From an uncultured Alphaproteobacteria bacterium (GTDB taxonomy: Bacteria > Pseudomonadota > Alphaproteobacteria > Rickettsiales > CAIJLX01), in the NCBI GenBank assembly GCA_903821695.1, contig CAIJLX010000020.1, positions 1 to 63,613 on the forward strand: DNA of 63,613 bases, given 5' to 3'. Shown piece by piece: positions 35,978 to 51,159 of the stretch. The position numbers and the translations under genes were made by a program. The notes under the pieces are model-generated. The model made no database searches, had not been told where the DNA came from, and worked only from the letters and a program-made list of their open reading frames with translations. Position 1 is the first letter of the stretch, and every line of letters starts with the position of its first letter.

Positions 35978-37498
35978 ATGTGGTTAGATGACATCATAGG
36001 GGTGTTTTCGCCTCAATCTGCCTTCAAGCGTAAGCAAGCCCGTATCGCAATCGACGTGCTTGCGCGTGGCTATGAAGGCGCGAAAACTGGCAGACGGATT
36101 GATGACTGGATCACCAGCGGCACATCCGCCAATGCGGAAATCGGTGGCGCGGGCAATCGCCTGCGCGAGCGATCACGCGATCTGGTGCGGAATAATTGCT
36201 ACGGCAATAAAGCCATTGAGGTGTTCGTTGGTAATGCCATCGGCACAGGTATTACCGCACAGGCAACCACAGATTCGGATCGGCTGAATAAGCAGATCAT
36301 GGATGCATGGCGCGACTGGTGTCAATTTTGTGATGCTGACGGCGACCTCGACTTTGAAGGCATACAGTCACTGGCTGCGCGTGCCATGTTTGAAAGCGGC
36401 GAATGTTTTATTCGCTTTCGGGACATTGGTTTCAGCAAAACCATGCGAGTGCCTATGCAGTTGCAGGTGTTAGAGGCTGATTTCCTCGATACGGCAAAAA
36501 CCACTACGGGCGACAGTGGCAACGTCATTCGCCAAGGCATTGAGTTTGACAGCCAGAACCGCCGTGTTGCTTATTGGATGTGGCCGCAGCACCCAGGCGA
36601 AAGCATTGTTGGTAAAACCAGCTTTCAAAGCGTGCGTGTGCCAGCGGATCAGATTTTACACATCTTCCGCAAGCTGCGTCCTGGTCAATATCGCGGCGTG
36701 ACCGCCTTCGCTCCTTCGATGGTGCGGCTTCGTGATCTCGACGGTTACGACGATGCAGAATTATGGCGCAAAAAGATTGAGGCTTGCTTTGCCGCCTTCG
36801 TTGTTCAAAACAATGGCGCGGACGGCCCGATTGTTGGCAACGTAGCACGCAAAGGTAATGCCGCTGGCGGTGAACCTCAGAAAATTGAGGAGTTCCGCCC
36901 TGGCATGATTGAATATCTCCAGCCTGGTGAGGATGTCCGTTTCGGTAATCCCAGCAGCGACGGGAACTATGAATCCTACGAGCGCGTGCAGCTTCACGCT
37001 ATCGCCGCAGGGCTTGGCATTACTTACGAGCAGCTGACAGGTGACTTGTCACAGGTGAATTACAGCAGCCTCCGCGCAGGATTGCTGGAGTTCCGCCGCA
37101 CTGTGGAAATGATCCGCTGGCAGGTGCTGATCCCTAAATTATGCGCTCCCATATGGCGGCGGTTCATTGACCGTGCGTTGGTGGCAGGGGTGATCAGCAA
37201 GGCTGACTATGCCGTTAGCTGGACACCGCCGAAATTCGAGATGATCGATCCGCTCAAAGACGCGCAGGCCGACACTTTGATGATCCGCAACGGAACATTG
37301 ACGCAGAAAGAAGCCATCGCACGTCAGGGCTTTGACCCAGACAAGCAGCTTCAAGAGATCGCCGCAACCAACAAGCAACTCGATGATCTGGGCGTGATCC
37401 TTGATTCCGACCCACGCAACACAGCCAAGAGCGGGATGGTGCAAACAGAAAACTCAGGAGTACAAACCAATGACAGCAGCAAAAATTCCAAAGATTGA
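35978..37498 (+). CDS. phage portal protein (lambda family)
   Basis: The 506-residue protein forms the dodecameric ring at the capsid vertex through which DNA enters. Recognisable blocks are the N-terminal LRERSRDLVRNNCYGNKAIE, WCQFCDADGDLDF, ILHIFRKLRPGQYRGV and LTGDLSQVNYSSLRAGLLEFRR. The length and motifs fit the lambda gpB family. Its 3' end overlaps the capsid fusion gene by 29 bases. Confidence 0.93.
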   Translation: MWLDDIIGVFSPQSAFKRKQARIAIDVLARGYEGAKTGRRIDDWITSGTSANAEIGGAGNRLRERSRDLVRNNCYGNKAIEVFVGNAIGTGITAQATTDSDRLNKQIMDAWRDWCQFCDADGDLDFEGIQSLAARAMFESGECFIRFRDIGFSKTMRVPMQLQVLEADFLDTAKTTTGDSGNVIRQGIEFDSQNRRVAYWMWPQHPGESIVGKTSFQSVRVPADQILHIFRKLRPGQYRGVTAFAPSMVRLRDLDGYDDAELWRKKIEACFAAFVVQNNGADGPIVGNVARKGNAAGGEPQKIEEFRPGMIEYLQPGEDVRFGNPSSDGNYESYERVQLHAIAAGLGITYEQLTGDLSQVNYSSLRAGLLEFRRTVEMIRWQVLIPKLCAPIWRRFIDRALVAGVISKADYAVSWTPPKFEMIDPLKDAQADTLMIRNGTLTQKEAIARQGFDPDKQLQEIAATNKQLDDLGVILDSDPRNTAKSGMVQTENSGVQTNDSSKNSKD

Positions 37499-39494
37499 GC
37501 GTAAAGACCTGCCGCTACAAACACGGTTGGCAAGTTTTGAAGAACAACAGGCGGAAACGGAGGATCGCGTATTCAATGTGATCTTCACGACTGGTGCAAT
37601 CGTTCGCCGCTACAATTTTATGGCAGATGAATCCTACGACGAAGAACTGGTGGTGAGTCCCACCGCTCTACGGCTCGGAAGATTGAACTCAGGAGCCGCC
37701 CCCGTCCTTGATACCCATTCTGATTTTACCCTTGAGAATATCAAGGGTGTGGTGATGGGCGGCAGCGCACGCATTGAAAACGGACTTGGCTATGCCAGCC
37801 TAAAAATCGACGGCGGCGTGGAGAATGAGTCCGTCATTCGAAAAATTCGGGATGGCATCATCCGGAATGTCAGCGTTGGCTATCGTGTCCACCGGTACGA
37901 GGTCATACGCAGTGAAGGCACAGTGCCGCTTTACCGTGCCGTCGACTGGGAGCCTTACGAAATATCACTTGTTCCCATCGGGGCGGATGCTGGTGCTGGC
38001 ATTCGTTCCAACCCTCACACATTTCCGTGTGAGATTATCAATCCTCAACCTTCTAAGGAGTTAAGACTTATGACCGACATCGACAACAAGCCGCAGGAGC
38101 AGGATACTCCTGCAACCCCGCAAACGGAAACCCCTCCCGCTGCGAATCCTCCAGCAACAGACCCGCAACCTGCAGCACCAGCTTCTACAGAAGAAGCGCG
38201 TGCCGAAGGTGCTCGCCTTGAACGCCAGCGTGCAGCGGAGATCACCAAGATCACCCGCTCTGCCATGCTGCCTGACACATTTGCCCAGAAATTGGTAAGT
38301 GACGGCACTGCCATTCCTCAAGCCCGTAAATTGGTGCTGGATGAATTGGCACGCAAAAGTGGCGAAAACGGAGAAATCCGCCCGCAGATTTCCATCGTGC
38401 GTGACGAGATGGACTCAGCGCGTGCCATGGTGGAAAATGCATTGCTTCACCGCCATGATCCAAAAACCTACAAGCTGGATGACGGCGCACGCGAATACCG
38501 TGGCATGACATTGATGGAAATGGGGCGTGACTTGCTGGAACGCAGGGGCATTCGTTCTCGCGGTCTTTCCAAGTCGGAAGTGGCAGGTGCAATGCTGGGA
38601 CTGGAAATGCGCGGTGGCTTTCACTCCACCAGTGATTTCCCTTTGATTCTGGCAAACGTAGCAAACAAAACGCTGCGTGCCGCCTATGAGGCTGCTCCCC
38701 AGACTTTCAAAGGGTTTTCACGCCAGACCACGAACCCAGATTTCAAAACCATCGCCCGCACACAGTTGGGTGATGCACCTTCGCTCGAGAAGGTAAATGA
38801 ATCTGGCGAGTTCAAACGTGGGACTGTCAGCGAGGCTCGTGAACAATACGCGCTTGCCACTTACGGCAAGGTCGTGGCTGTTACGCGCCAAACCATCATC
38901 AATGATGATCTGGGTGCATTCACCCGTTTGCCAGAGATGTTCGGCCGCGCTGCTGCCGACCTCGAAAGCGATACGGTGTGGGGCATTATTACCAGTAACC
39001 CGAACATGGGTGATGGTGTGGCACTGTTCCATGCCACCCATGGCAACCTTGCTGGTGCTGGCGCAGTCATCAGCGTGGCAACACTTGGCGATGCGCGTGC
39101 GGGTATGCGTAAACAGAAAGGCTTGAATGGACGCTTTATCAACGTCATGGCCAAGTATCTGATAGTGCCTGCTGCCATTGAAACGGTGGCCGAGCAATTC
39201 GTGACCCAGACCAACATCGTCTACACCAAGAACACCGATTATAATCCGTTTGCCAACAAGCTACAGGTTATTGCGGAGCCTCGTCTTGATGCTGCCTCGG
39301 CGATTTCCTGGTATCTCGCCGCTGATCCTGCCCAGATCGATACCATTGAGTATGCGTATCTCGAAGGACAGCAAGGCGTTTACCTTGAGAGTCGTGTTGG
39401 TTTCGATGTGGATGGTGTGGAACTGAAAGCCCGCCTCGACTTCGCTGCCAAGGCTATTGATCATCGCGGTTTCTGGAAAAACCCAGGCGCATAA
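37470..39494 (+). CDS. prohead protease / major capsid protein fusion
   Basis: The 674-residue protein combines an N-terminal HK97-type prohead serine protease with a C-terminal major capsid protein. The protease part has H83 in DTHSDF and S135 in RNVSVGY. A Pro/Thr/Ala-rich linker spans about residues 195-250, then a scaffold-like helical part (245-350), then the Mu gpT-like coat domain (about 360-674). Separate protease and capsid genes are absent, so one polypeptide provides both. AGGAG precedes ATG 37470, which lies in the portal gene. Confidence 0.9.
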   Translation: MTAAKIPKIERKDLPLQTRLASFEEQQAETEDRVFNVIFTTGAIVRRYNFMADESYDEELVVSPTALRLGRLNSGAAPVLDTHSDFTLENIKGVVMGGSARIENGLGYASLKIDGGVENESVIRKIRDGIIRNVSVGYRVHRYEVIRSEGTVPLYRAVDWEPYEISLVPIGADAGAGIRSNPHTFPCEIINPQPSKELRLMTDIDNKPQEQDTPATPQTETPPAANPPATDPQPAAPASTEEARAEGARLERQRAAEITKITRSAMLPDTFAQKLVSDGTAIPQARKLVLDELARKSGENGEIRPQISIVRDEMDSARAMVENALLHRHDPKTYKLDDGAREYRGMTLMEMGRDLLERRGIRSRGLSKSEVAGAMLGLEMRGGFHSTSDFPLILANVANKTLRAAYEAAPQTFKGFSRQTTNPDFKTIARTQLGDAPSLEKVNESGEFKRGTVSEAREQYALATYGKVVAVTRQTIINDDLGAFTRLPEMFGRAAADLESDTVWGIITSNPNMGDGVALFHATHGNLAGAGAVISVATLGDARAGMRKQKGLNGRFINVMAKYLIVPAAIETVAEQFVTQTNIVYTKNTDYNPFANKLQVIAEPRLDAASAISWYLAADPAQIDTIEYAYLEGQQGVYLESRVGFDVDGVELKARLDFAAKAIDHRGFWKNPGA

Positions 39495-41311: not shown

Positions 41312-42586
41312 ATGGCTCGATCTTATGGCTCGGCAGCAACTCTGCTTGCCTTGAAAGAAGTAACCTATGGGCTTAAGCCCACTGGTAACTGGGAAAAGTT
41401 TGCGTTTGTATCCTCGGATTTAAGCGCAGAACAAAATCTAATTTCATCCGATCTGCTTGGGCAAGGACGCGAACCACGCGCACCTTTCCGCGATGTCATC
41501 AACGATGAAGGCAATCTGGTCATCCCAGTAGAAGGCCGTGATTTTGGCCGCTGGCTACAACTTCTTCTCGGCAATCCTGTATCGGCTGGCGTTGCGGCGA
41601 CGGGTGACATCACCTTTACCGCAAACCCGAGCGCAACCCATACCATCACCATTAACGGCGTGGTGTGGACGTTCGTTGCCAGTGGTGCGACGGGTACGCA
41701 AACCAATATCGGCGCGAACCTTGCCGCCACGCTCACACAGTTGGCAACTGACTTAAATGCCTCAGTAAATGCCAGCATCACGCCTGTAACTTATGCAAAT
41801 GTAGGCGGCACTAAGCTCGGATTCACACATGATACGCTAGGTGCTGCAGGTAACGCATTCACCATCGCATCAGGCAATGCCAACGGGGTGGTAAGCGGTG
41901 CAACGCTCTCAGGCGGTGGTTACACTCATACTTTCATCAGCGGTGCAGCGAGCCTTCCGTCCTTTGCAGCAGAAATCGGCCATGCCAATGTGCCTGCCTA
42001 TTTTGTGCATACGGGCTGCATGCTCAATAGCATGGCGATGAATTTCCAGCGTTCTGGCTCTGCCAATGCCACGCTGAATATCATTGCCCAGGGCGAAACA
42101 CGCTTTGCATCCACGCAAGGCGGCACGCCGACAAGCCGTGTTTACAAGCCATTCAGCCAATTTAATGGCTCGATCAAGCGTAACAACATATCGCTGGCGA
42201 ACATCACGGGAGCGCAGTTTACCTACTCCAACGGCATGCAAGCCGTACCCACCATTCGTAATGATGCGCTGATCGAAGGCGTTGATCCGACCACAATTTC
42301 CGTCAACGGCAGCATTGACGTGCGCTTCGCCGATACCGTGCTGGTGGATGACGCAATTAACAACACCGCGATTGAACTGGAGCTTGCCTACAAGCTGGCT
42401 GGGCTAGAGGGTAATAACTTCTCGCTCACCTGGACATTCCACGAAGTTTATTTGCCGCGACCGCGCATTCCTGTGTCGGGACCAGGCGGCGTGCAAGCCA
42501 GCTTCAACTGGCAAGGCGTGTTCGACGACTCTCTCACAAAATCCGTCACTGTCGTTCTGAAAAACGACATCACCACTTACCCATAA
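41312..42586 (+). CDS. major tail tube protein
   Basis: The 424-residue beta-rich protein begins MARSYGSAATLLALKEVTYG and has FRDVINDEGNLVIPVEGRDFG, typical of siphophage tail-tube proteins. The mid-section (about 95-215) is a Thr/Ala/Gly-rich insertion resembling a surface Ig-like domain, which explains the greater length than the usual 300 residues. GGAG precedes the start. Confidence 0.85.
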   Translation: MARSYGSAATLLALKEVTYGLKPTGNWEKFAFVSSDLSAEQNLISSDLLGQGREPRAPFRDVINDEGNLVIPVEGRDFGRWLQLLLGNPVSAGVAATGDITFTANPSATHTITINGVVWTFVASGATGTQTNIGANLAATLTQLATDLNASVNASITPVTYANVGGTKLGFTHDTLGAAGNAFTIASGNANGVVSGATLSGGGYTHTFISGAASLPSFAAEIGHANVPAYFVHTGCMLNSMAMNFQRSGSANATLNIIAQGETRFASTQGGTPTSRVYKPFSQFNGSIKRNNISLANITGAQFTYSNGMQAVPTIRNDALIEGVDPTTISVNGSIDVRFADTVLVDDAINNTAIELELAYKLAGLEGNNFSLTWTFHEVYLPRPRIPVSGPGGVQASFNWQGVFDDSLTKSVTVVLKNDITTYP

Positions 42587-42595
42587 GGAGAAGTT

Positions 42596-43117
42596 ATGCT
42601 CAGATTAAATCTCAAAAAAGAACCGTACTGGCTCGATTTACCCGCAGGCGTGAAGGTCAAGGTGCGCCCGCTTTCCACCGCCATCATGAGCGCAGCGCAG
42701 TCCTCGGTGATTAAACAGATCACCGACTGGCGGCAGGAGCGTAAATCCCGCCTCGATATTGGCACAGATGTAAGTGACCTGCCTGATGTGGATGACGAAT
42801 TAACCCGCCTCGGGCTTTCGGAATCCATGCTGATAAAAGCCCTTGCCTGTGGCGCAGTCATTGAATGGCAAGGCGTGCTTGCAAGCGTTGGTGATACAGT
42901 TCCGCAAGTGAACCACCAGACCGTCAGTGATCTGATGGACATCTGGTTTGTGGCGCAGGAGTTCTGGAAACAATACACAGCGTCACTTTCGCTATTGGAA
43001 GCCGAGGGAAACGCATCAGGGCTCGCAGCAGCTGGCACTTCGGCGGCGGGTCTGGATATTGCAAAGGATGCCACGACGAAGAACTCCCGTGCAGCAAAGG
43101 TGAAAAAAGCCAGTTAA
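42596..43117 (+). CDS. tail assembly chaperone, upstream product
   Basis: The 173-residue protein (DLPAGVKVKVRPLSTAIM, LADLMDIWF-like helices) is placed between the tube and tape-measure genes, as lambda gpG. It binds the tape measure during tail assembly. Near its end is a run AAAAAA (43103-43108), and the frame one base back stays open from at least 43102 to 43398, suggesting a longer frameshift product. Confidence 0.75.
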   Translation: MLRLNLKKEPYWLDLPAGVKVKVRPLSTAIMSAAQSSVIKQITDWRQERKSRLDIGTDVSDLPDVDDELTRLGLSESMLIKALACGAVIEWQGVLASVGDTVPQVNHQTVSDLMDIWFVAQEFWKQYTASLSLLEAEGNASGLAAAGTSAAGLDIAKDATTKNSRAAKVKKAS

Positions 43118-43398
43118 CGGGCGAACTCTGCCCCTACATCCAGCATGAACCCACCACCCATGAAGGGTTTGAAACGTGGGAAATCATCCTGCGGTGCAGT
43201 GGGCAACTGAAACTTTATCCCAGCGGCAAGATCGCGGGGTTCGACATTCCAACCATTTTAAGCGTGACCCATGTGCTTGGCTACGAGCCGCGAGCACTCT
43301 TGCTTCTGCTCGACTATGCCGAGGCAGGGTTACGAGAGGCAATCCGTAACCATGGCAACAGCAACTCAGAACATTTCGATCAGGATAGCGGTCGTTGA
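43102..43398 (+). CDS. tail assembly chaperone, -1 frame extension (no own start codon)
   Basis: This 98-codon frame has no ATG, yet encodes a plausible protein (ELCPYIQHEPTTHEGFETWE, SGKIAGFDIPTILSVTHVLGYEP). It ends inside the tape-measure gene (stop 43396-43398). It lies one base behind the upstream chaperone frame, as lambda G and GT, so it is probably reached by a -1 slip near GAAAAAAG at 43102-43109. The 0-frame pair AAA AAA can re-pair in the A site; the P site would read GAA, a mismatch, so the exact site is open. Confidence 0.65.
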   Translation, partial: EKSQLTGELCPYIQHEPTTHEGFETWEIILRCSGQLKLYPSGKIAGFDIPTILSVTHVLGYEPRALLLLLDYAEAGLREAIRNHGNSNSEHFDQDSGR

Positions 43399-45553
43399 CG
43401 GCGATAAGGTACGCCGTGAATTAACGCTCACTGGTGAAGCGGGACAGCGTGCGCTTGCCAGAATTAAGGACGCCACTGCGCCTGCAACAAAATCGCTGGC
43501 TGCGGTGAATGTCGTTGGTGAGCAAGTGCGCTATGGCATGGAGAATCTTGCTGGTGGCACTGGCTCTCTGGGTGCAAGCCTAACCCGCCTTGGCCCCGTG
43601 GGTCTGGCTGCTGCGGCAGCGATTGGTGCGCTTGGATTGGCGGTTGCTGGCGGTATTAGAGAATTCAAGGAAGCGGAACAGGCACTTAACCAACTAAACG
43701 CTGCACTTAATGCCACTGATTTTTCTGCTGGCGTTACGGCGAAAGAAATTACTGCGCTCGGTGAAGCTGTTGAAGGCAACACCTTGTTCAAGAAGGAAGC
43801 GATACAGCAAGCCGCTGCTTCGCTTACCTCTTTTCAGAATGTAGCGGGTGAAACCTTTACCCGCGCACTAAAACTATCAGCCGATCTGGCGGTGCGGCTA
43901 GGAACGGATTTACCGTCTGCCGCTGATATGCTGGGCAAAGCACTGGAAGCTCCAGAAGAAGGGCTTGGTAGACTGGCGCGGAAATTCAGTGACCTATCGC
44001 CCGCACAGAAGGAAGCAATCGACAACTTCGTTAAGCTGGGGGATGTCGCTTCTGCCCAGGCAGTCATCCTTGAGCATCTGGAATCCAAAACCAAAGGGCT
44101 GGCAGAAGCACAGGCACAGGGATTAACGGGTGCTGCTGACACATTGGGTGATGCATGGGACGATTTGCTGGAATCGTTTGGTAGAACCATCAGTGAATCA
44201 GGCGCGGCTCAAGTCAGCCTGAACTTGCTCACCAAAGCGGTGCGCGGCTTGCAAGAAGCGATTAATCCAACACGCGAGCAGCGCAAAAGCGAACTTGAAG
44301 AAGAAATCAGCAGCCTAAAGGATAGCTTTGGCACGAAGGTGGATCAGTTCGTGCTTGGCAGTGCACCAGTGCTTGAGCAGAAAAAACGCGAACTGCAAAA
44401 GATAAATGAGGAACTTGCCGCCGAACAGAAGAAGGCGGATGAAGAAATACAGAACGCCCGCACCGCCGCTGAAAAAGCTGCGGCCGAGCGGCGCAACAAC
44501 CAGCTGCTCGAGCTTCAGAAGAAATATCTGAAAGAATATGAGGATGTAACACTCACCGCGCAGCAGAAAATCCTGCGTGATGCAGAGGAACGCCGCAAGC
44601 AGATCGTAGCTCTGAACAAGGGTGATACCAACAGCGATGCCGCAAAAGAAGCATTGGCTGCGCTTAATGCCTCCACCAAGGCAAAGCTGGCTGACGCTAA
44701 TAAATCCACAGCAAAGACTTCTGTTGGCAGCAAAAAAGATGACAGCGAGGAAAAACGCGCTCGTGCAATTGAGGAAATCAATCGCGGAATATTGCGAACC
44801 AAGCCTTCCTATGACGTTGCCAAGCAGGCACTGGACGAGTGGAAAACCAAGCTGATTGAAAACCTTGGCGGCGCGAGTGAAGCCAACCAGCAGTATATCG
44901 ACAAGATCGAACAGATCTATTCGGTGAAGCTAAAGGAAATTTACGACAAGTCATTGCTCGATAGCGATAAATGGGAGGACGGCGCAAGCCGCGCTCTCAA
45001 ACGCTATGCGGATGAAGCCACCAATGCGGCAAAAAACGCTGAGGATTTATTCGGCAGTGCTGCCAGCAAGGTGGAAGATACACTGGTGGATATGGTCACC
45101 ACGGGCGAGTTTTCGTTCAAAAAGCTGGGCGATCTCGTACAGTCCATTGAGCAGGACATTTTGCGGATGTTCATCCGTCAGCAGGTTACTGGCCCCATCG
45201 CAGGTGCGCTGGGTGATTTTGTCAAAGGTAGTGGCGGCGATATTTTCGGCAGCATCTTCGGTAGCCTGTTTCATGATGGCGGTGTGGTTGGCGCATCCAG
45301 TGTTGCCCGTCGCGCTGTGCCTTCGCATCTGTTTGCAGGTGCGCCACGCTTTCATAATGGCCTGATGCCTGACGAGTTCCCCGCCATTTTGCAAAAGGGC
45401 GAAACAGTGCTGCCACGAAACACCAAAATGGGCGGCAACAATATCACCTTTAATATCACCACCCCGAACGCCCAGAGCTTCATGGATTCCCAAGGGCAGA
45501 TCATGAGCAAGCTGGCGACCCAGATGGGGCGGCATAAATCGAGGAACGGATAA
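43352..45553 (+). CDS. tail tape measure protein
   Basis: The 733-residue protein sets tail length. The N-terminus IRIAVVDGDKVRRELTLTGEAG is typical of lambda-type tape measures. An Ala/Gly-rich hydrophobic segment (LGPVGLAAAAAIGALGLAVAGG, about 85-105) and long coiled-coil regions (for example 330-460) follow. The C-terminus ends SFMDSQGQIMSKLATQMGRHKS. ATG 43352 is used since the longer frame starts inside the chaperone. The stop shares bases with the next start. Confidence 0.9.
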   Translation: MATATQNISIRIAVVDGDKVRRELTLTGEAGQRALARIKDATAPATKSLAAVNVVGEQVRYGMENLAGGTGSLGASLTRLGPVGLAAAAAIGALGLAVAGGIREFKEAEQALNQLNAALNATDFSAGVTAKEITALGEAVEGNTLFKKEAIQQAAASLTSFQNVAGETFTRALKLSADLAVRLGTDLPSAADMLGKALEAPEEGLGRLARKFSDLSPAQKEAIDNFVKLGDVASAQAVILEHLESKTKGLAEAQAQGLTGAADTLGDAWDDLLESFGRTISESGAAQVSLNLLTKAVRGLQEAINPTREQRKSELEEEISSLKDSFGTKVDQFVLGSAPVLEQKKRELQKINEELAAEQKKADEEIQNARTAAEKAAAERRNNQLLELQKKYLKEYEDVTLTAQQKILRDAEERRKQIVALNKGDTNSDAAKEALAALNASTKAKLADANKSTAKTSVGSKKDDSEEKRARAIEEINRGILRTKPSYDVAKQALDEWKTKLIENLGGASEANQQYIDKIEQIYSVKLKEIYDKSLLDSDKWEDGASRALKRYADEATNAAKNAEDLFGSAASKVEDTLVDMVTTGEFSFKKLGDLVQSIEQDILRMFIRQQVTGPIAGALGDFVKGSGGDIFGSIFGSLFHDGGVVGASSVARRAVPSHLFAGAPRFHNGLMPDEFPAILQKGETVLPRNTKMGGNNITFNITTPNAQSFMDSQGQIMSKLATQMGRHKSRNG

Positions 45554-46155
45554 TGCCCACATTTCATGAAGTACAGTTTCCACCCAAAGTCGCTTATGGC
45601 GCATCGGGTGGCGCGGAGTTTAACACCAGCATTACCACTACTTTCTCAGGGTTCGAGCAACGCAATGTCAACTGGCAAAAAGCGCGTGGACGCTGGGATG
45701 TGTCGACTGGCATTAAAACCAAAACCGATATGGACATCCTGCAGGCGTTTTTCCGCGCTCGTTACGGTAAAGCCTATGGCTTCCGCTTCAAGGACTGGAG
45801 CGATTACCAAGCGGTGGGGCAAACGCTCGGCACAGGGAATGGCACGCAAACAGCCTTTCAGCTGACAAAAACCTATACCAGCGGTGCTTACAGCTACAGC
45901 CGCGACATTAAGAAACCCGTCACTGGCACAGTAAAAATCTACCTGAACGCCGTGCTTCAAGGCGCAGGCTTCAGCGTTGATCTCACCACTGGGATTGTCA
46001 CTTTCTCTGCCGCGCCTGGTGCGGGTGTAATTGTGAGCGCGGATTTTGATTTCGATGTGCCAGTGCGCTTTGACACCGACACGCTGTCTGTGCGTGCGGA
46101 CGGCCCAGGCATATTTGTCTGGGATGCAATTCCAATTGTGGAGATACGCTTATGA
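45553..46155 (+). CDS. distal tail protein (DUF2460, GTA-type)
   Basis: The 200-residue protein opens FHEVQFPPKVAYGASGGAEFNT and contains WQKARGRWDVSTGI and RARYGKAYGFRFKDWSDY, the DUF2460/TIGR02217 signature. In Rhodobacter GTA this protein is the distal tail ring under the tube. It is the first of the four-gene GTA-type block. Confidence 0.92.
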   Translation: MPTFHEVQFPPKVAYGASGGAEFNTSITTTFSGFEQRNVNWQKARGRWDVSTGIKTKTDMDILQAFFRARYGKAYGFRFKDWSDYQAVGQTLGTGNGTQTAFQLTKTYTSGAYSYSRDIKKPVTGTVKIYLNAVLQGAGFSVDLTTGIVTFSAAPGAGVIVSADFDFDVPVRFDTDTLSVRADGPGIFVWDAIPIVEIRL

Positions 46156-47012
46156 GAACCGCATCAAGTAATATGGCCGCGCATCTGGCGGGTGAAGTTA
46201 CCAGCCTTGCAGTGTGCTGGAAGCTCACTTTAACCAGCGGCACGGTAATGGGCTTCACCGATCACACCGATGATCTGACTTTCAGCAGCCAGCTTTATAA
46301 AGCCGCGACGGGTTTTTCACCCACCAGCGTGGAAACCAAGGATAAATTCAGCGTCGATAATCTAGACGTGGCAGGAATCCTCGACGCTGCAGCAATCACC
46401 GAAGCTGACATCATGGCTGGCAAATATGACTTTGCTGAGATTGAAATCTTCATGGTGAATGTCACTGATCTCTCGCAAGGATCAATCACGCACCGCCGTG
46501 GCTGGCTTGGTGAAGTGAGTTTGAAGAACGGACAGTTTGTCGCCGAAGTCCGTGGTCTGGCACAAAAATTACAGCAGAATATCGTCGAGCTTTACAGCCC
46601 CACATGCCGCGCTGTGTTCGGTGATACGCGCTGCAAAGCCAATCTTGCCAGCTACACGGTGGGTGGAACGGTCAACACCATCACCAGCCGCCAGATATTT
46701 ATCAGCAATTCTATGACACAGGCGGCGGGGTATTTCTCCAGCGGCGAAGTGGTGTGGCTCACTGGCGCGAACGCAGGACGGCGCATGGAGATTAAAGAGT
46801 TCTCCAACAAGCAATTCACATTGGTGCTGCCTATGCCAAACAACGTGGCTGTGGGCGACACCTTCAACGCCATTGCAGGATGCGACAAAACCATCGGCAC
46901 TTGCGTGGCAAAATTCAATAACGCCGTCAATTTTCGCGGTGAGCCTTACGTTCCAGGCATGGACAAGATGCTCGCCACCTCAGCAACATCCAATGATTTA
47001 CAAAGCGTATGA
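46152..47012 (+). CDS. tail hub protein (DUF2163, GTA-type)
   Basis: The 286-residue protein has the DUF2163/TIGR02218 pattern: VTSLAVCWKLTLTSGTVMGFTDH, RRGWLGEVSL and the conserved cysteine segment SPTCRAVFGDTRCKANL. A C-terminal CDKTIGTCVAKFNN block follows. The cysteine cluster may bind an Fe-S cluster, as reported for GTA hub proteins. It overlaps the previous stop in an ATGA. Confidence 0.92.
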   Translation: MRTASSNMAAHLAGEVTSLAVCWKLTLTSGTVMGFTDHTDDLTFSSQLYKAATGFSPTSVETKDKFSVDNLDVAGILDAAAITEADIMAGKYDFAEIEIFMVNVTDLSQGSITHRRGWLGEVSLKNGQFVAEVRGLAQKLQQNIVELYSPTCRAVFGDTRCKANLASYTVGGTVNTITSRQIFISNSMTQAAGYFSSGEVVWLTGANAGRRMEIKEFSNKQFTLVLPMPNNVAVGDTFNAIAGCDKTIGTCVAKFNNAVNFRGEPYVPGMDKMLATSATSNDLQSV

Positions 47013-47449
47013 CACATTCACAGGACATCGTAATCCAAGCTCGTACATGGCTTGGCACGCCGTTTCACCATCAGGCGCGACTTAAAGGCAAAGGCTGTGA
47101 CTGCCTCGGCCTGATTGTCGGCGTGGTGGATGAACTCGGATTAAAGGACACCCATGGTCAGCCCCTCGCTGCCTATGACGAAGTGACCTATTCCAGAGAG
47201 CCTGACGGCGCATATCTTACGCAAAAGCTCACCGCCTTGCTTGAAGAAGTGCCGTTTACAGAAGCCCAAGCTGGCGATCTGGCTTTGTTTACCGTGCGCG
47301 ATAACCCGCAGCACATGGCACTCCTAACGGATTACGAAGGCACGCTCGGCATGATCCATTGCTACGCGCAGGCGCGGCGCGTGGTTGAGCATCGCCTCGA
47401 CGATGACTGGAAATCAAGACTTGTGAAGGTATTCAGATGGCAGCAATAG
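47009..47449 (+). CDS. NlpC/P60 tail peptidase (GTA-type)
   Basis: The 146-residue protein is a cysteine peptidase with nucleophile C32 in GKGCDCLGL and the histidine in DNPQHMALLTDYEG. It matches TIGR02219, the tail-associated peptidoglycan endopeptidase of GTA and GTA-like phages, which helps the tail through the cell wall. It overlaps both neighbours (ATGA upstream). Confidence 0.9.
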   Translation: MTHSQDIVIQARTWLGTPFHHQARLKGKGCDCLGLIVGVVDELGLKDTHGQPLAAYDEVTYSREPDGAYLTQKLTALLEEVPFTEAQAGDLALFTVRDNPQHMALLTDYEGTLGMIHCYAQARRVVEHRLDDDWKSRLVKVFRWQQ

Positions 47450-50400
47450 TTTTAGCAGCTGCGGCCAGTTCCGCCGCCACATCGCTCGGCGCAGGCACGT
47501 TCTTTGCCGCCGTAGCTGGTGGTGCGGGTGGATTTCTGGGTGGGTTCGTTGACCGCGCTATTTTCGGCGGTGGCAAGGCACGCATCAATCAGGAAGGCTC
47601 ACGCCTGACCGATTTAATGGTGCAGGCTTCCACCTATGGCAAGGCAATCCCTGTCGTTTACGGCAATGCCCGTATTGCAGGAAACGTCATCTGGTCACGC
47701 CCGATTCAGGAGCATGTGACCACCAGCACGCAATCCTCTGGCGGTGGTAAAGGTGGCGGCGGAGGTGGTGGCGTGGAAACCACTACGACCAGCTACACCT
47801 ACACGGCTTCACTGGCAGTGGCTATTTGCGAGGGTGCAATCAGTGAAGTGGTGCGCGTATGGGCGGACAGCAAACAGTTGGATTTAACCCAAGGCAGCTA
47901 CACGCTTTATCTGGGTGACGAAACGCAACTGCCTGATACCTATATCTCATCGTTCTATACGGCTGGGCAAACGCCAGCCTATCGCGGCATGTCCTATGTG
48001 GTGATTAAGGATTTCCCTCTAGGGGATTTTGGCAACCGCATTCCGAACTTTACCTTTGAGGTGCGCCGCACGCTGAAGAAACCCTTCGACCTTGAGGACA
48101 AGATTAAAGACATCACCATTATCCCTGGTGCTGGCGAGTTTGTATATGACACGGTGGTGCAGGAAAAAACCAGCGGGCAGCAGGACGTTTCAGGCAACTT
48201 CGTTCAGGGCGGCAAAGTTACCAAACTGAACCTGAACAATCTGAATAACAAAGCCGATATGCTGGTGGCTCTTGATAACCTGAAAGCCAATCTCCCGAAT
48301 GTGGAATGGGTGTCGGTAGTGGTTAACTGGTTTTCCGACTCCGTCGACCCCGCTGTGAGTATCATTAGGCCTGCGGTGGAGTTTGACGGTCAAGGAGCGC
48401 GTGTTGCGCCCGATGATTGGGCGGTCGGCAGCTTTACACGCGCGACTGCACACGAGATTCTGACGTTCCCAGACGGCACTCCCACTTACGGCGGAACGCC
48501 GACCGATAAAAGCATTGTGCGGCTATGTCAGGAGTTAAAGGCGCGTGGCTATAACGTGCTGTTTTACCCGATGGTGCAAGTGGACACCATCACGCCACAA
48601 AGCAAGCCATGGCGCGGCAGGATTACGGCTACCACCATAGCGGATGCAAATAACTTCTTCACGCGCACCAATGGCTACAACGGATTCATCACACACTATG
48701 CCAACCTCAATGTGGGCGGCGTGCTGCTGAAGAACAACATCGATGCCTTCATGATCGGATCAGAGTTAATCGGTCTGACCCAGTACATGAATCCGACGGG
48801 TGTTTTCCCTGCGGTGACCCAACTTAAAAGCCTTGCAGCTACGGTGAAATCCGCTGTCGGCGCAGGCGTGAAAGTGATGTATGGCGGCGACTGGAGCGAA
48901 TATCATTCGGTAAACGGCTGGTATAATCTCGACCCGCTATGGTCGGATTCCAACATCGATGCGGTGGCAATTGATTGCTATTTCCCGCTCACGCCAGATC
49001 TACCGCAATCGCAGATCGACTATCAGGCGATTTACGATGGGTGGACGCAGGACGAAGGCTGGGATTATTACTGGGACGGCACGCGCACCACTCAAACCTT
49101 CTATTCAGGCGCAACCTACGCCTGGAAGAATGTGCAGCACTGGTGGAACAGCACCCACACCAATCCCGATGCCAGTGGCACAGCATGGACTGCCAAGATG
49201 AAGCCGATCTGGTTCTCCGAGCTTGGCTTTCCTTCGGTGGACGGCTGCGCGAACCAGCCCAACGTATTCGTTGACCCTGACTCGGTAGAGAGTTTCTATC
49301 CTCGTGGCAGTCGCAGCAGAGTGGACTTTCTGGCGCAACGTACCGCGCTTGATGCATCCATCGATTATTTGGATGCACAAAACGCACTGGAGGCTAATTT
49401 TATTCCACGCAAGTTTATCTGGACGTGGGACGCACGGCCGTTCCCATTCTTCCCCGACCTCGGTTCGGTGTGGGCGGACGGCAGCAACTGGAAAACAGGG
49501 CATTGGGTGCAAGGCAAGCTGGGGCTGTCAAACCTCGGCCAGATCGTTGCCGATCTGCTGAAAAAGGTTGGCTACGATACGACGATGTATGACACCAGCC
49601 GCCTGACAGATATTGTTTCTGGCTTCATCATTACGAACCGCCAAACGGTGCGTGCGTGCCTCGAACAACTATCGACCGCTTACTTTTTTGACATGGTGGA
49701 GTCGGATGGTCTGCTGAAATTCATCAAGCGGGGAAAGATTTCCAACACCACGGTGGACTTTACCGAACTGGTGCCAGGTGATGATGCGATCAACACTTTT
49801 AGCATTACTCGCACGCAGGAACTGGAATTGCCACGCCAGGTGGATGTGATTTATCTGAATCGCACGGCGGATTATCAGGCAGGCACGCAATCCTCGCAGC
49901 GGCAAACGGTGAAGGCGGTGGATTATGCTACGGTGAACCTGCCGATTGTGCTTTCCGATCAGGAAGCAAAAGTGGTGGCAGATGTCACCCTTTACAATGC
50001 CTGGGTGGGACGTGTGCAGTATCAATTCACTGTGCCGCCGAAATACGCACTGCTTGAGCCGACCGATGTGATTACTGTCACGAAGGATGGTGCATCTTAT
50101 GTGATGCGCGTGAATTCGACCAAGCTGGTGCGGAATGGGATGCAGGAAATCATGGCGGTTGCGGAGGATGTCAGCAGCTATGATTTCTATAATCCTGCTG
50201 GTACTGGAACACCGAACTTACAGCCACCAACGAGCATTTCCGCCACACGGCTGGAATTGCTCGACTTGCCAGCATTTCCTACCGATGCAGTAACGGATGC
50301 ATATCTGCGTTATGGCGTAGTGGGCTTGGGTGGCGACTGGACAGGTTCGGCGGTTTACCGCTCGGATGATGGTGGCTCAAACTATGCGCTGATGCAAACG

Positions 50401-51159
50401 CTTACGGCGCAGGCAACCATCGGTGCAGTGCTGAACATCATTCCCGCAGGAACGGTTTACACCTGGGACGATAGCACCACCATTGATGTGCTTTTAACCT
50501 TTGGTCAGCTGCAAAGCGTGACCGACATTGCCGTGCTGAATGGCGCGAATGTATGCGTCATCGGCGATGAGGTGATTCAGTTCCAAACCGCCACACTGCT
50601 TGATACCAACAAATACCGCCTCTCAAACCTGCTGCGTGGGCGGCTTGGAACGGAATGGGCTGTCAGTGGCCATGTCGCTGGCGAGCGTTTTATCATGCTG
50701 ACAAACGCTCTGGCGCGTGAGCTTATGGCTTCTTCTGGCTGGAGCATTAGCAAGAAGTACAAGCCCGTAACGATAGGCTCTACGCTTGGGGCAACAACCG
50801 CGCAGGACTTTACCTATGCGGCAAGAGCCTTAAAGCCCTATGAGCCCGTGCATATCGTGGGTAGCCGCAACACAGGTGGTGATCTCACCATCAACTGGAA
50901 GCGGCGCACACGGATCGGTGGCGATTGGCGGGATGCAGTGGACATTCCGCTCTCCGAGGAATCAGAACGCTACGAGGTAGAAATCATGCAAGGCGTAACG
51001 CTGAAGCGCACGATTACTGGCCTGACATCGCCCACAACCATCTACACCGCCGCACAGCAAGTGACCGATTTCGGATCGGCACAAAGCAGCGTGCTGGTGA
51101 ATGTCTACCAGCTTTCAGCGGCTGTTGGACGAGGAAATGCGGGCATAGCCACCATCTAA
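47437..51159 (+). CDS. GTA-type baseplate megatron with TIM-barrel glycosidase-like domain
   Basis: The 1,240-residue protein has an N-terminal hydrophobic Ala/Gly segment and a Gly-rich loop (GGGKGGGGGGG), then a TIM-barrel-like domain (about 280-690). That domain includes KVMYGGDWSEYHSVNGW, PLWSDSNIDAVAIDCYFP and WFSELGFPSVDGCANQPNVF. A phage tail-hub domain and fibronectin-like C-terminal domains follow. It is the counterpart of Rhodobacter GTA gp15, the tail tip that contacts the receptor. The barrel probably cuts or binds a surface glycan. Confidence 0.92.
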   Translation: MAAIVLAAAASSAATSLGAGTFFAAVAGGAGGFLGGFVDRAIFGGGKARINQEGSRLTDLMVQASTYGKAIPVVYGNARIAGNVIWSRPIQEHVTTSTQSSGGGKGGGGGGGVETTTTSYTYTASLAVAICEGAISEVVRVWADSKQLDLTQGSYTLYLGDETQLPDTYISSFYTAGQTPAYRGMSYVVIKDFPLGDFGNRIPNFTFEVRRTLKKPFDLEDKIKDITIIPGAGEFVYDTVVQEKTSGQQDVSGNFVQGGKVTKLNLNNLNNKADMLVALDNLKANLPNVEWVSVVVNWFSDSVDPAVSIIRPAVEFDGQGARVAPDDWAVGSFTRATAHEILTFPDGTPTYGGTPTDKSIVRLCQELKARGYNVLFYPMVQVDTITPQSKPWRGRITATTIADANNFFTRTNGYNGFITHYANLNVGGVLLKNNIDAFMIGSELIGLTQYMNPTGVFPAVTQLKSLAATVKSAVGAGVKVMYGGDWSEYHSVNGWYNLDPLWSDSNIDAVAIDCYFPLTPDLPQSQIDYQAIYDGWTQDEGWDYYWDGTRTTQTFYSGATYAWKNVQHWWNSTHTNPDASGTAWTAKMKPIWFSELGFPSVDGCANQPNVFVDPDSVESFYPRGSRSRVDFLAQRTALDASIDYLDAQNALEANFIPRKFIWTWDARPFPFFPDLGSVWADGSNWKTGHWVQGKLGLSNLGQIVADLLKKVGYDTTMYDTSRLTDIVSGFIITNRQTVRACLEQLSTAYFFDMVESDGLLKFIKRGKISNTTVDFTELVPGDDAINTFSITRTQELELPRQVDVIYLNRTADYQAGTQSSQRQTVKAVDYATVNLPIVLSDQEAKVVADVTLYNAWVGRVQYQFTVPPKYALLEPTDVITVTKDGASYVMRVNSTKLVRNGMQEIMAVAEDVSSYDFYNPAGTGTPNLQPPTSISATRLELLDLPAFPTDAVTDAYLRYGVVGLGGDWTGSAVYRSDDGGSNYALMQTLTAQATIGAVLNIIPAGTVYTWDDSTTIDVLLTFGQLQSVTDIAVLNGANVCVIGDEVIQFQTATLLDTNKYRLSNLLRGRLGTEWAVSGHVAGERFIMLTNALARELMASSGWSISKKYKPVTIGSTLGATTAQDFTYAARALKPYEPVHIVGSRNTGGDLTINWKRRTRIGGDWRDAVDIPLSEESERYEVEIMQGVTLKRTITGLTSPTTIYTAAQQVTDFGSAQSSVLVNVYQLSAAVGRGNAGIATI

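What the first reader, a model, noticed from the sequence alone, without database searches (positions are those of the whole stretch)
43100..43398. Likely -1 programmed frameshift in the tail assembly chaperone
A 98-codon frame without any ATG overlaps the end of the first chaperone gene and the start of the tape-measure gene, exactly where lambda has the G/GT frameshift. A six-A run preceded by G lies in the overlap. The heptamer G-AAA-AAA is not the canonical X-XXY-YYZ, so the slip may be an unusual one.
Basis: partly seen in the sequence, partly recalled or inferred. Interest (0 to 1): 0.5.

Follow-up and report, generated by a model that had tools for sequence, protein, structure and literature searches.

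The report
Ordinary tail-chaperone frameshift, site relocated
A phage tail gene here is read in two overlapping ways through a standard ribosome slip, at a classic slippery spot about 96 bases upstream of the suspected one; the case is ordinary, but it suggests a role for a protein family of unknown function.

Summary
The second frame is real, and a -1 programmed frameshift of the lambda G/GT kind is strongly supported by comparison. The proposed site and the "unusual slip" are wrong. G-AAA-AAA (43102-43108) occurs in 3 of 27 distinct relatives, near-identical to each other. The shift site is GGGAAAC at 43006-43012 (zero frame G_GGA_AAC), the only canonical X_XXY_YYZ heptamer in frame in this gene; it shows no change on a tree of 27 distinct relatives, and the wobble pattern of variation switches from zero frame to -1 frame there. 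In 78 of 84 distinct loci examined, GGGAAAC, AAAAAAC or AAAAAAA stands at the homologous place (tally in full report). A stem-loop about 7 nt downstream is a family-wide feature, but not significant in this window alone. Expected products: a 173-aa G-like chaperone and a 267-aa GT-like fusion. Rhodobacter phage records already carry such a joined gene. The T part is related to Pfam DUF7697, whose matches nearly always sit behind such a site; no paper in the held library names DUF7697. New member of a known kind.

The parts
42596..43117 (+). Zero-frame chaperone ORF (G-like), 173 aa
   Evidence: PHROG 313 'Tail assembly chaperone' E 6e-8; no Pfam match at E 1.
43006..43012 (+). Slippery heptamer GGGAAAC, zero frame G_GGA_AAC
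   Evidence: Only canonical X_XXY_YYZ in frame in the ORF; no inferred change on 27 distinct rows; heptamer at this place in 78 of 84 loci (and tally).
43020..43052 (+). Possible stimulatory stem-loop (arms 43020-43029 and 43043-43052), 7 nt after the heptamer
   Evidence: Family-wide excess folding right after the heptamer; 9-pair helix, 96.1% of cells paired. Not significant for the window alone.
43012..43398 (+). -1-frame T-like domain, 128 aa plus stop; fusion product of 139 + 128 = 267 aa
   Evidence: Conserved protein with invariant C17, C20, C27, C40 in 24 rows; -1-frame wobble pattern from the heptamer on; AlphaFold2 pLDDT 83.6.
42931..43398 (+). Whole stop-to-stop extent of the -1 frame; no ATG in it
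43102..43108 (+).
   Evidence: Present in 3 of 27 distinct relatives, near-identical ones.
41312..42586 (+). Tail tube (major tail) protein gene upstream
   Evidence: Pfam Phage_tube_2 E 1.5e-43.
43352..45553 (+). Tape-measure protein gene; start 43352 is inference (one search lists 43271)
   Evidence: Tape_meas_lam_C E 5.6e-24 and TMP_2 E 1.6e-9.

Best explanation
A tail assembly chaperone gene of a long-tailed prophage makes two proteins from one start. Most ribosomes read 42596-43117 (G-like, 173 aa). A minority slip back one base when GGA and AAC of G_GGA_AAC (43006-43012) are in the P and A sites, helped in this family by a stem-loop starting 7 nt downstream, and continue in the -1 frame to 43398, giving a 267-aa GT-like fusion. 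By analogy with lambda, the G part binds the tape-measure protein and the T part brings in tail-tube subunits. Shown by sequence comparison: the second frame is coding and the frame switch lies at the heptamer. Inferred: that ribosomes really slip here, how often, the role of the stem in this copy, and the assembly function.
For: Only canonical in-frame heptamer. No change in the heptamer on 27 distinct rows; changes per site peak at zero-frame position 3 upstream (5.42 against 2.44 and 1.47) and at -1-frame position 3 downstream (3.67 against 1.47 and 1.90); best change point 9 nt before the heptamer, the top 14 from -12 to +3. Canonical heptamer at the homologous place in 78 of 84 distinct loci (and tally); in the tblastn-placed set, 40 of 42. 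In five loci (L032, L049, L062, L067, L068) the -1 frame opens only 0 or 3 nt before the heptamer and has no ATG/GTG/TTG in the next 90 nt. Gene order tail tube, chaperone, tape measure. PHROG 313 match. Rhodobacter phages RcKemmy and RcOceanus annotate a joined two-piece chaperone at the matching place. Stem-loop signal across 46 loci. The zero-frame tail after the slip is predicted disordered (residues 138-173).
Against: No protein or expression data. The stem-loop is not significant in the window itself (z 0.01; p 0.207). Six of 84 loci lack the heptamer. Fold matches of the T part to tape-measure chaperones are weak (0 of 96 matches at E 0.001 or better), and solved structures gave nothing significant. 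Many relatives are close kin, so the counts are not independent events.
Confidence: 0.95

Rival explanations
1. The shift occurs at the reader's G-AAA-AAA run (43102-43108), an unusual slip of tRNA-Lys on AAA AAA.
For: The run is in the overlap in the right phase for a -1 shift.
Against: Found in 3 of 27 distinct relatives. The 31 codons of -1 frame upstream of it are conserved as protein and would not be made.
Confidence: 0.02
2. The second frame is a separate protein with its own internal start or by translational re-initiation, without a frameshift.
For: Some relatives have an upstream ATG/GTG/TTG in the -1 frame, e.g. TTG 69 nt or ATG 147 nt upstream of the site. Two phage records annotate two separate CDS.
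Against: The window has no ATG/GTG/TTG in the frame before 43264. In five loci the frame opens only 0 or 3 nt before the heptamer with no start codon in the next 90 nt. Non-standard starts such as CTG or ATC cannot be excluded by sequence.
Confidence: 0.02
3. RNA polymerase slippage on the A-run makes mRNAs with changed length.
For: Six As in a row are present.
Against: The run is short and not conserved, and lies downstream of the frame switch. Where the heptamer is GGGAAAC there is no long homopolymer.
Confidence: 0.005
4. The second frame is the remnant of a frameshift mutation in a once-single gene (pseudogene).
For: Decayed copies do exist: the second copy on contig C72 of this genome, L034 and L037.
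Against: The same two-frame layout recurs in 78 of 84 loci including annotated phage genomes, with purifying selection in the -1 frame.
Confidence: 0.005

Closest known systems
Phage lambda G/GT chaperone and the conserved -1 frameshift of long-tailed phages (review PMC5009743, passages; Xu, Hendrix and Duda 2004 seen only as a citation)
   Same: Position between major tail and tape-measure genes, overlapping -1 frame, canonical heptamer, G-only and GT-fusion products.
   Different: Heptamer GGGAAAC (lambda's GGGAAAG is recalled); overlap of 34 zero-frame codons after the site; T part with four conserved cysteines. No experiment here.
Rhodobacter phages RcKemmy and RcOceanus tail assembly chaperones (GenBank MW677517, MW677520)
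   Same: GGGAAAC, same gene order, T part homologous (tblastn E 2e-8 and 3e-7), joined CDS in the record.
   Different: About 31-33% protein identity.
Caulobacter phages phiCbK (AAAAAAC) and Colossus (GGGAAAC), pre-tape-measure chaperones (PMC3556154, passage)
   Same: Same two heptamers; the Colossus chaperone is the best named fold match of the G part (E 1.1e-3).
   Different: No sequence match was tested between them and the window.
Pfam DUF7697 (PF24752)
   Same: C-terminal part of the T domain aligns; relative L019 scores 70.3 bits; matches sit behind a slip heptamer in 10 of 11 and 23 of 26 loci.
   Different: The window's own T part scores 17-18 bits, below the 27-bit cut-off.

Membership tests
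lambda G/GT-type frameshifted tail assembly chaperone | Gene lies between the major tail protein gene and the tape-measure gene | tested here: met
   Phage_tube_2 upstream, Tape_meas_lam_C downstream.
lambda G/GT-type frameshifted tail assembly chaperone | Overlapping -1 frame without its own start, under selection as protein | tested here: met
lambda G/GT-type frameshifted tail assembly chaperone | Canonical slippery heptamer at the frame switch, conserved in relatives | tested here: met
lambda G/GT-type frameshifted tail assembly chaperone | Homology to known tail assembly chaperones | tested here: met
   G part: PHROG 313 E 6e-8; both parts match Rhodobacter phage chaperones. Fold matches are weak.
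lambda G/GT-type frameshifted tail assembly chaperone | Both G and GT proteins made, in a fixed ratio | not testable with these tools
   Needs expression data.
lambda G/GT-type frameshifted tail assembly chaperone | G binds tape measure, T binds tail-tube protein | not testable with these tools
   Needs biochemistry.
lambda G/GT-type frameshifted tail assembly chaperone | Downstream stimulatory RNA structure (common, not defining) | tested here: inconclusive
   Present across the family, not significant in the window.
Pfam DUF7697 (PF24752) | Score over the curated cut-off of 27 bits | tested here: not met
   18.4 and 17.6 bits. Related through L019 (70.3 bits), not filed as a member.

The most novel reading that the evidence does not exclude
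DUF7697 and this window's T part form one family of cysteine-motif, probably metal-binding T domains of tail chaperones that are reached only through a -1 frameshift, so database entries that show them alone are truncated. The heptamer's last base is never G because it is also the first base of a near-invariant Arg codon of the T frame, so a protein constraint selects the slip codon.
Probability: 0.45. Interest if true: 0.4.

Novelty: new member of a known kind. Interest (0 to 1): 0.27.

Why it matters
It corrects the site and gives a clear comparative case for the frameshift in an alphaproteobacterial prophage lineage. It offers a role for a Pfam family of unknown function and a rule (GGGAAAC, AAAAAAC or AAAAAAA directly before R[IL]...W) by which annotation could join these genes.

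Tried and rejected
The G-AAA-AAA site: rejected, not conserved and downstream of the frame switch. Internal initiation: not favoured. An upstream Shine-Dalgarno-like stimulator was looked at by eye only (GGAAG ends 4 nt before the heptamer, too close by the spacing I recall); nothing is claimed. The idea that the host avoids AAG as slip codon because it has a second lysine tRNA was not supported: of 38 tRNA matches in the held genome, the 30 that had loci were given to ARAGORN; one is tRNA-Lys(UUU), none tRNA-Lys(CUU). Of the other 8 (82-91 bases long), only the one inside the window was run, tRNA-Ser. Rfam gave two sub-threshold matches only. PDB searches by sequence and by fold gave nothing significant; a missing match does not show a new fold. 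The change-point fit was not given a permutation test. A paper search for gene transfer agent, frameshift, tape measure and chaperone led to a Wolbachia paper (PMC10299305, passages) about a +1 shift in another gene; not relevant here.

Full report
Observation. The chaperone ORF is 42596-43117 (173 aa). The -1 frame is open 42931-43398 without ATG. The six-A run preceded by G is at 43102-43108. Neighbours are a tail tube gene (Phage_tube_2) and a tape-measure gene (Tape_meas_lam_C), the right place for a G/GT chaperone. PHROG 313, tail assembly chaperone, matches the ORF at E 6e-8.

Where the frame switches. Relatives came from viral contigs (17 loci with the G protein; 11 with the T protein; 28 with a T alignment) and genome contigs (8); many are the same contigs. 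The -1-frame protein is conserved well upstream of the A-run, with WHFGGG..YC..C....LPC..GE...TGE.CPY as the commonest pattern. Directly before it stands GGGAAAC at 43006-43012, in the phase G_GGA_AAC and the only canonical in-frame heptamer in the ORF. On 27 distinct GGGAAAC rows the heptamer shows no inferred change; L065, L066 and L079, also GGGAAAC, were left out as too distant. Parsimony changes per site upstream of the heptamer are 2.44, 1.47 and 5.42 at zero-frame positions 1, 2 and 3; in the 90 nt after it they are 1.47, 3.67 and 1.90, so the most variable position becomes the third base of the -1 frame. A two-regime Poisson fit raises the log-likelihood from 9.2 to 65.2; the best change point is 9 nt before the heptamer and the top 14 lie from -12 to +3. 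At the A-run columns G-AAA-AAA is found in 3 of the 27 rows: window, L038 and L003.

Breadth. My tally of distinct loci: 31 viral contigs (31 with the heptamer); 8 genome contigs (6); 6 phage records opened of 15 that matched (6); the window and the second copy in its own genome (2); L089 (1); 10 further DUF7697 loci of the class search (9); 26 further ones of the phylum search (23). Together 78 of 84. Loci that repeat a place already counted were dropped, some recognised by equal contig length only: L001, L080, L082-L088, L090, L091, and L073 on its second appearance. Misses: L034 (the stretch with the slip site is missing, tape-measure gene interrupted) and L037 (T remnant fused to a capsid-gene piece); L077 (no heptamer at the place; the frames look merged; 3.4-kb contig); L096 (no heptamer, looks degenerate), L116 (near a contig start), L103 (looks like a P-type ATPase, below the Pfam cut-off). 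Types among the 78: GGGAAAC 36, AAAAAAC 35, AAAAAAA 7; 70 are distinct by 120 nt. Among these 70, at the 60 other codon offsets a canonical heptamer occurs in 0.14% on average and 4.3% at most. The 23 phylum-search sites were placed with the help of heptamer plus motif, so their position is not independent; the 42 loci were placed by tblastn without regard to the heptamer, and 40 of them have it.

No other entry. In L032, L049 and L062 the -1 frame opens right at the heptamer and in L067 and L068 3 nt before it; none of the five has ATG, GTG or TTG in that frame in the next 90 nt. Other relatives do have possible starts further upstream. In 6 of 70 distinct loci the zero frame ends one codon after the heptamer, in the others 20-56 codons after it, so the zero-frame tail looks dispensable; in the window it is predicted disordered (pLDDT under 50 at residues 138-173; the slip follows residue 139).

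Stimulator. In 46 distinct loci the 43 nt right after the heptamer fold better than dinucleotide shuffles (mean z -2.12, 87% of loci below -1); none of the 35 other offsets tested has a mean below -0.86. Against random synonymous versions of the -1 frame the mean z is -2.22 and 29 of 46 have p at most 0.05. In 23 aligned GGGAAAC rows a 9-pair helix with a 7-nt spacer keeps 96.1% of cells paired, with two pairs changed on both sides; its covariation score is 0.242 against at most 0.202 for slid versions. For the window itself the result is negative: z 0.01, synonymous p 0.207, and three longer or shifted folds not better than shuffles (z 0.12, 1.54, 1.21). The loci are related, so these are not 46 independent tests.

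The T part. It has 128 residues; R1, W8, H9, G13, Y16, C17, C20, C27, C40, G52, W56 and G90 are invariant in the 24 rows. In the wider set H9 and Y16 vary. The AlphaFold2 model has pLDDT 83.6. Among 96 viral fold matches none reaches E 0.001; the best is an uncharacterised protein (E 0.025), followed by tape measure chaperones of Enterobacter phage F20 (0.055), Klebsiella phage Solomon and Escherichia phage vB_EcoS_W011D (0.2 each) and Serratia phage Scapp (1.1). For the G model (pLDDT 70.2) the best named match is the pre-tape measure chaperone of CcrColossus, E 1.1e-3. Metal binding is my inference from the cysteines. The T part is related to DUF7697: 18.4 bits, under the cut-off of 27, while relative L019 scores 70.3. 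DUF7697 matches were found in 10 of 289 genomes of the class and 13 of 398 of the phylum, and in 1 of 14 control genomes, Caulobacter vibrioides, whose locus I did not open. They sit behind a slip heptamer in 10 of 11 loci (one of these below the cut-off) and 23 of 26. No paper in the held library holds the word DUF7697, and none holds DUF1799 together with frameshift; other libraries were not searched.

The last base. All 78 heptamers end in C or A, none in G, although A_AAA_AAG is the more shift-prone in E. coli (PMC5009743, passages). That base begins the first T codon, which reads Arg in 76 of 78 loci and Leu in 2. CGN and AGA/AGG can give Arg, GNN cannot. That the protein constrains the slip codon is inference; the reverse cause is not excluded, though the 7 AAAAAAA loci also reach Arg.

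Known cases. [quoted passage not shown] PMC3556154 (passage) gives AAAAAAC for phiCbK and GGGAAAC for Colossus. PMC3483164 (passages) predicts GGGAAAC in KL1. PMC5313236 (passage) points to AAAAAAC in Loki. PMC8601537 (passages) says RcZahn lacks clear evidence for the frameshift, unlike most of its Rhodobacter phages. The records of RcKemmy and RcOceanus carry a two-piece joined chaperone CDS. PRFect (PMC10274946, passages) predicts such sites. The system is therefore a new member of a known kind.

Noticed in passing
L002 (own genome, contig C72), 615-2239, minus strand: A second, decayed copy of the chaperone region (77% identical DNA) keeps GGGAAAC, but its -1 frame runs on into a homologue of the window gene 46152-47012 with no tape-measure gene between.
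   Followed up: partly
L037 3074-4192: In another alphaproteobacterial genome a piece of the T domain is fused in frame to a piece of the prohead/capsid gene: a prophage remnant left by a deletion.
   Followed up: partly
L067 2157-2854 and L068 2157-2854: Nostoc phage Nsp-JY21 and Synechococcus phage Sc-Yong805-1 have AAAAAAA at the homologous place, but their records annotate two separate genes instead of a joined one.
   Followed up: partly
window 45553-51159: The tail tip module (DUF2460, phiJL001 Gp84-like, NlpC/P60, GTA TIM-barrel and Rcc01698-like domains) resembles that of Rhodobacter gene transfer agents (resemblance of the set recalled).
   Followed up: no
window 42983-43025: A weaker fold signal over and just before the heptamer (window starting 36 nt before the first downstream base: mean z -1.38 in the GGGAAAC group, -2.27 in this window); an attenuating hairpin or chance.
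   Followed up: no
window 37401-39494: A long ORF whose C-terminal part matches phage capsid families (Phage_capsid_4, Mu-like_gpT); the N-terminal part may be a fused prohead protease.
   Followed up: no
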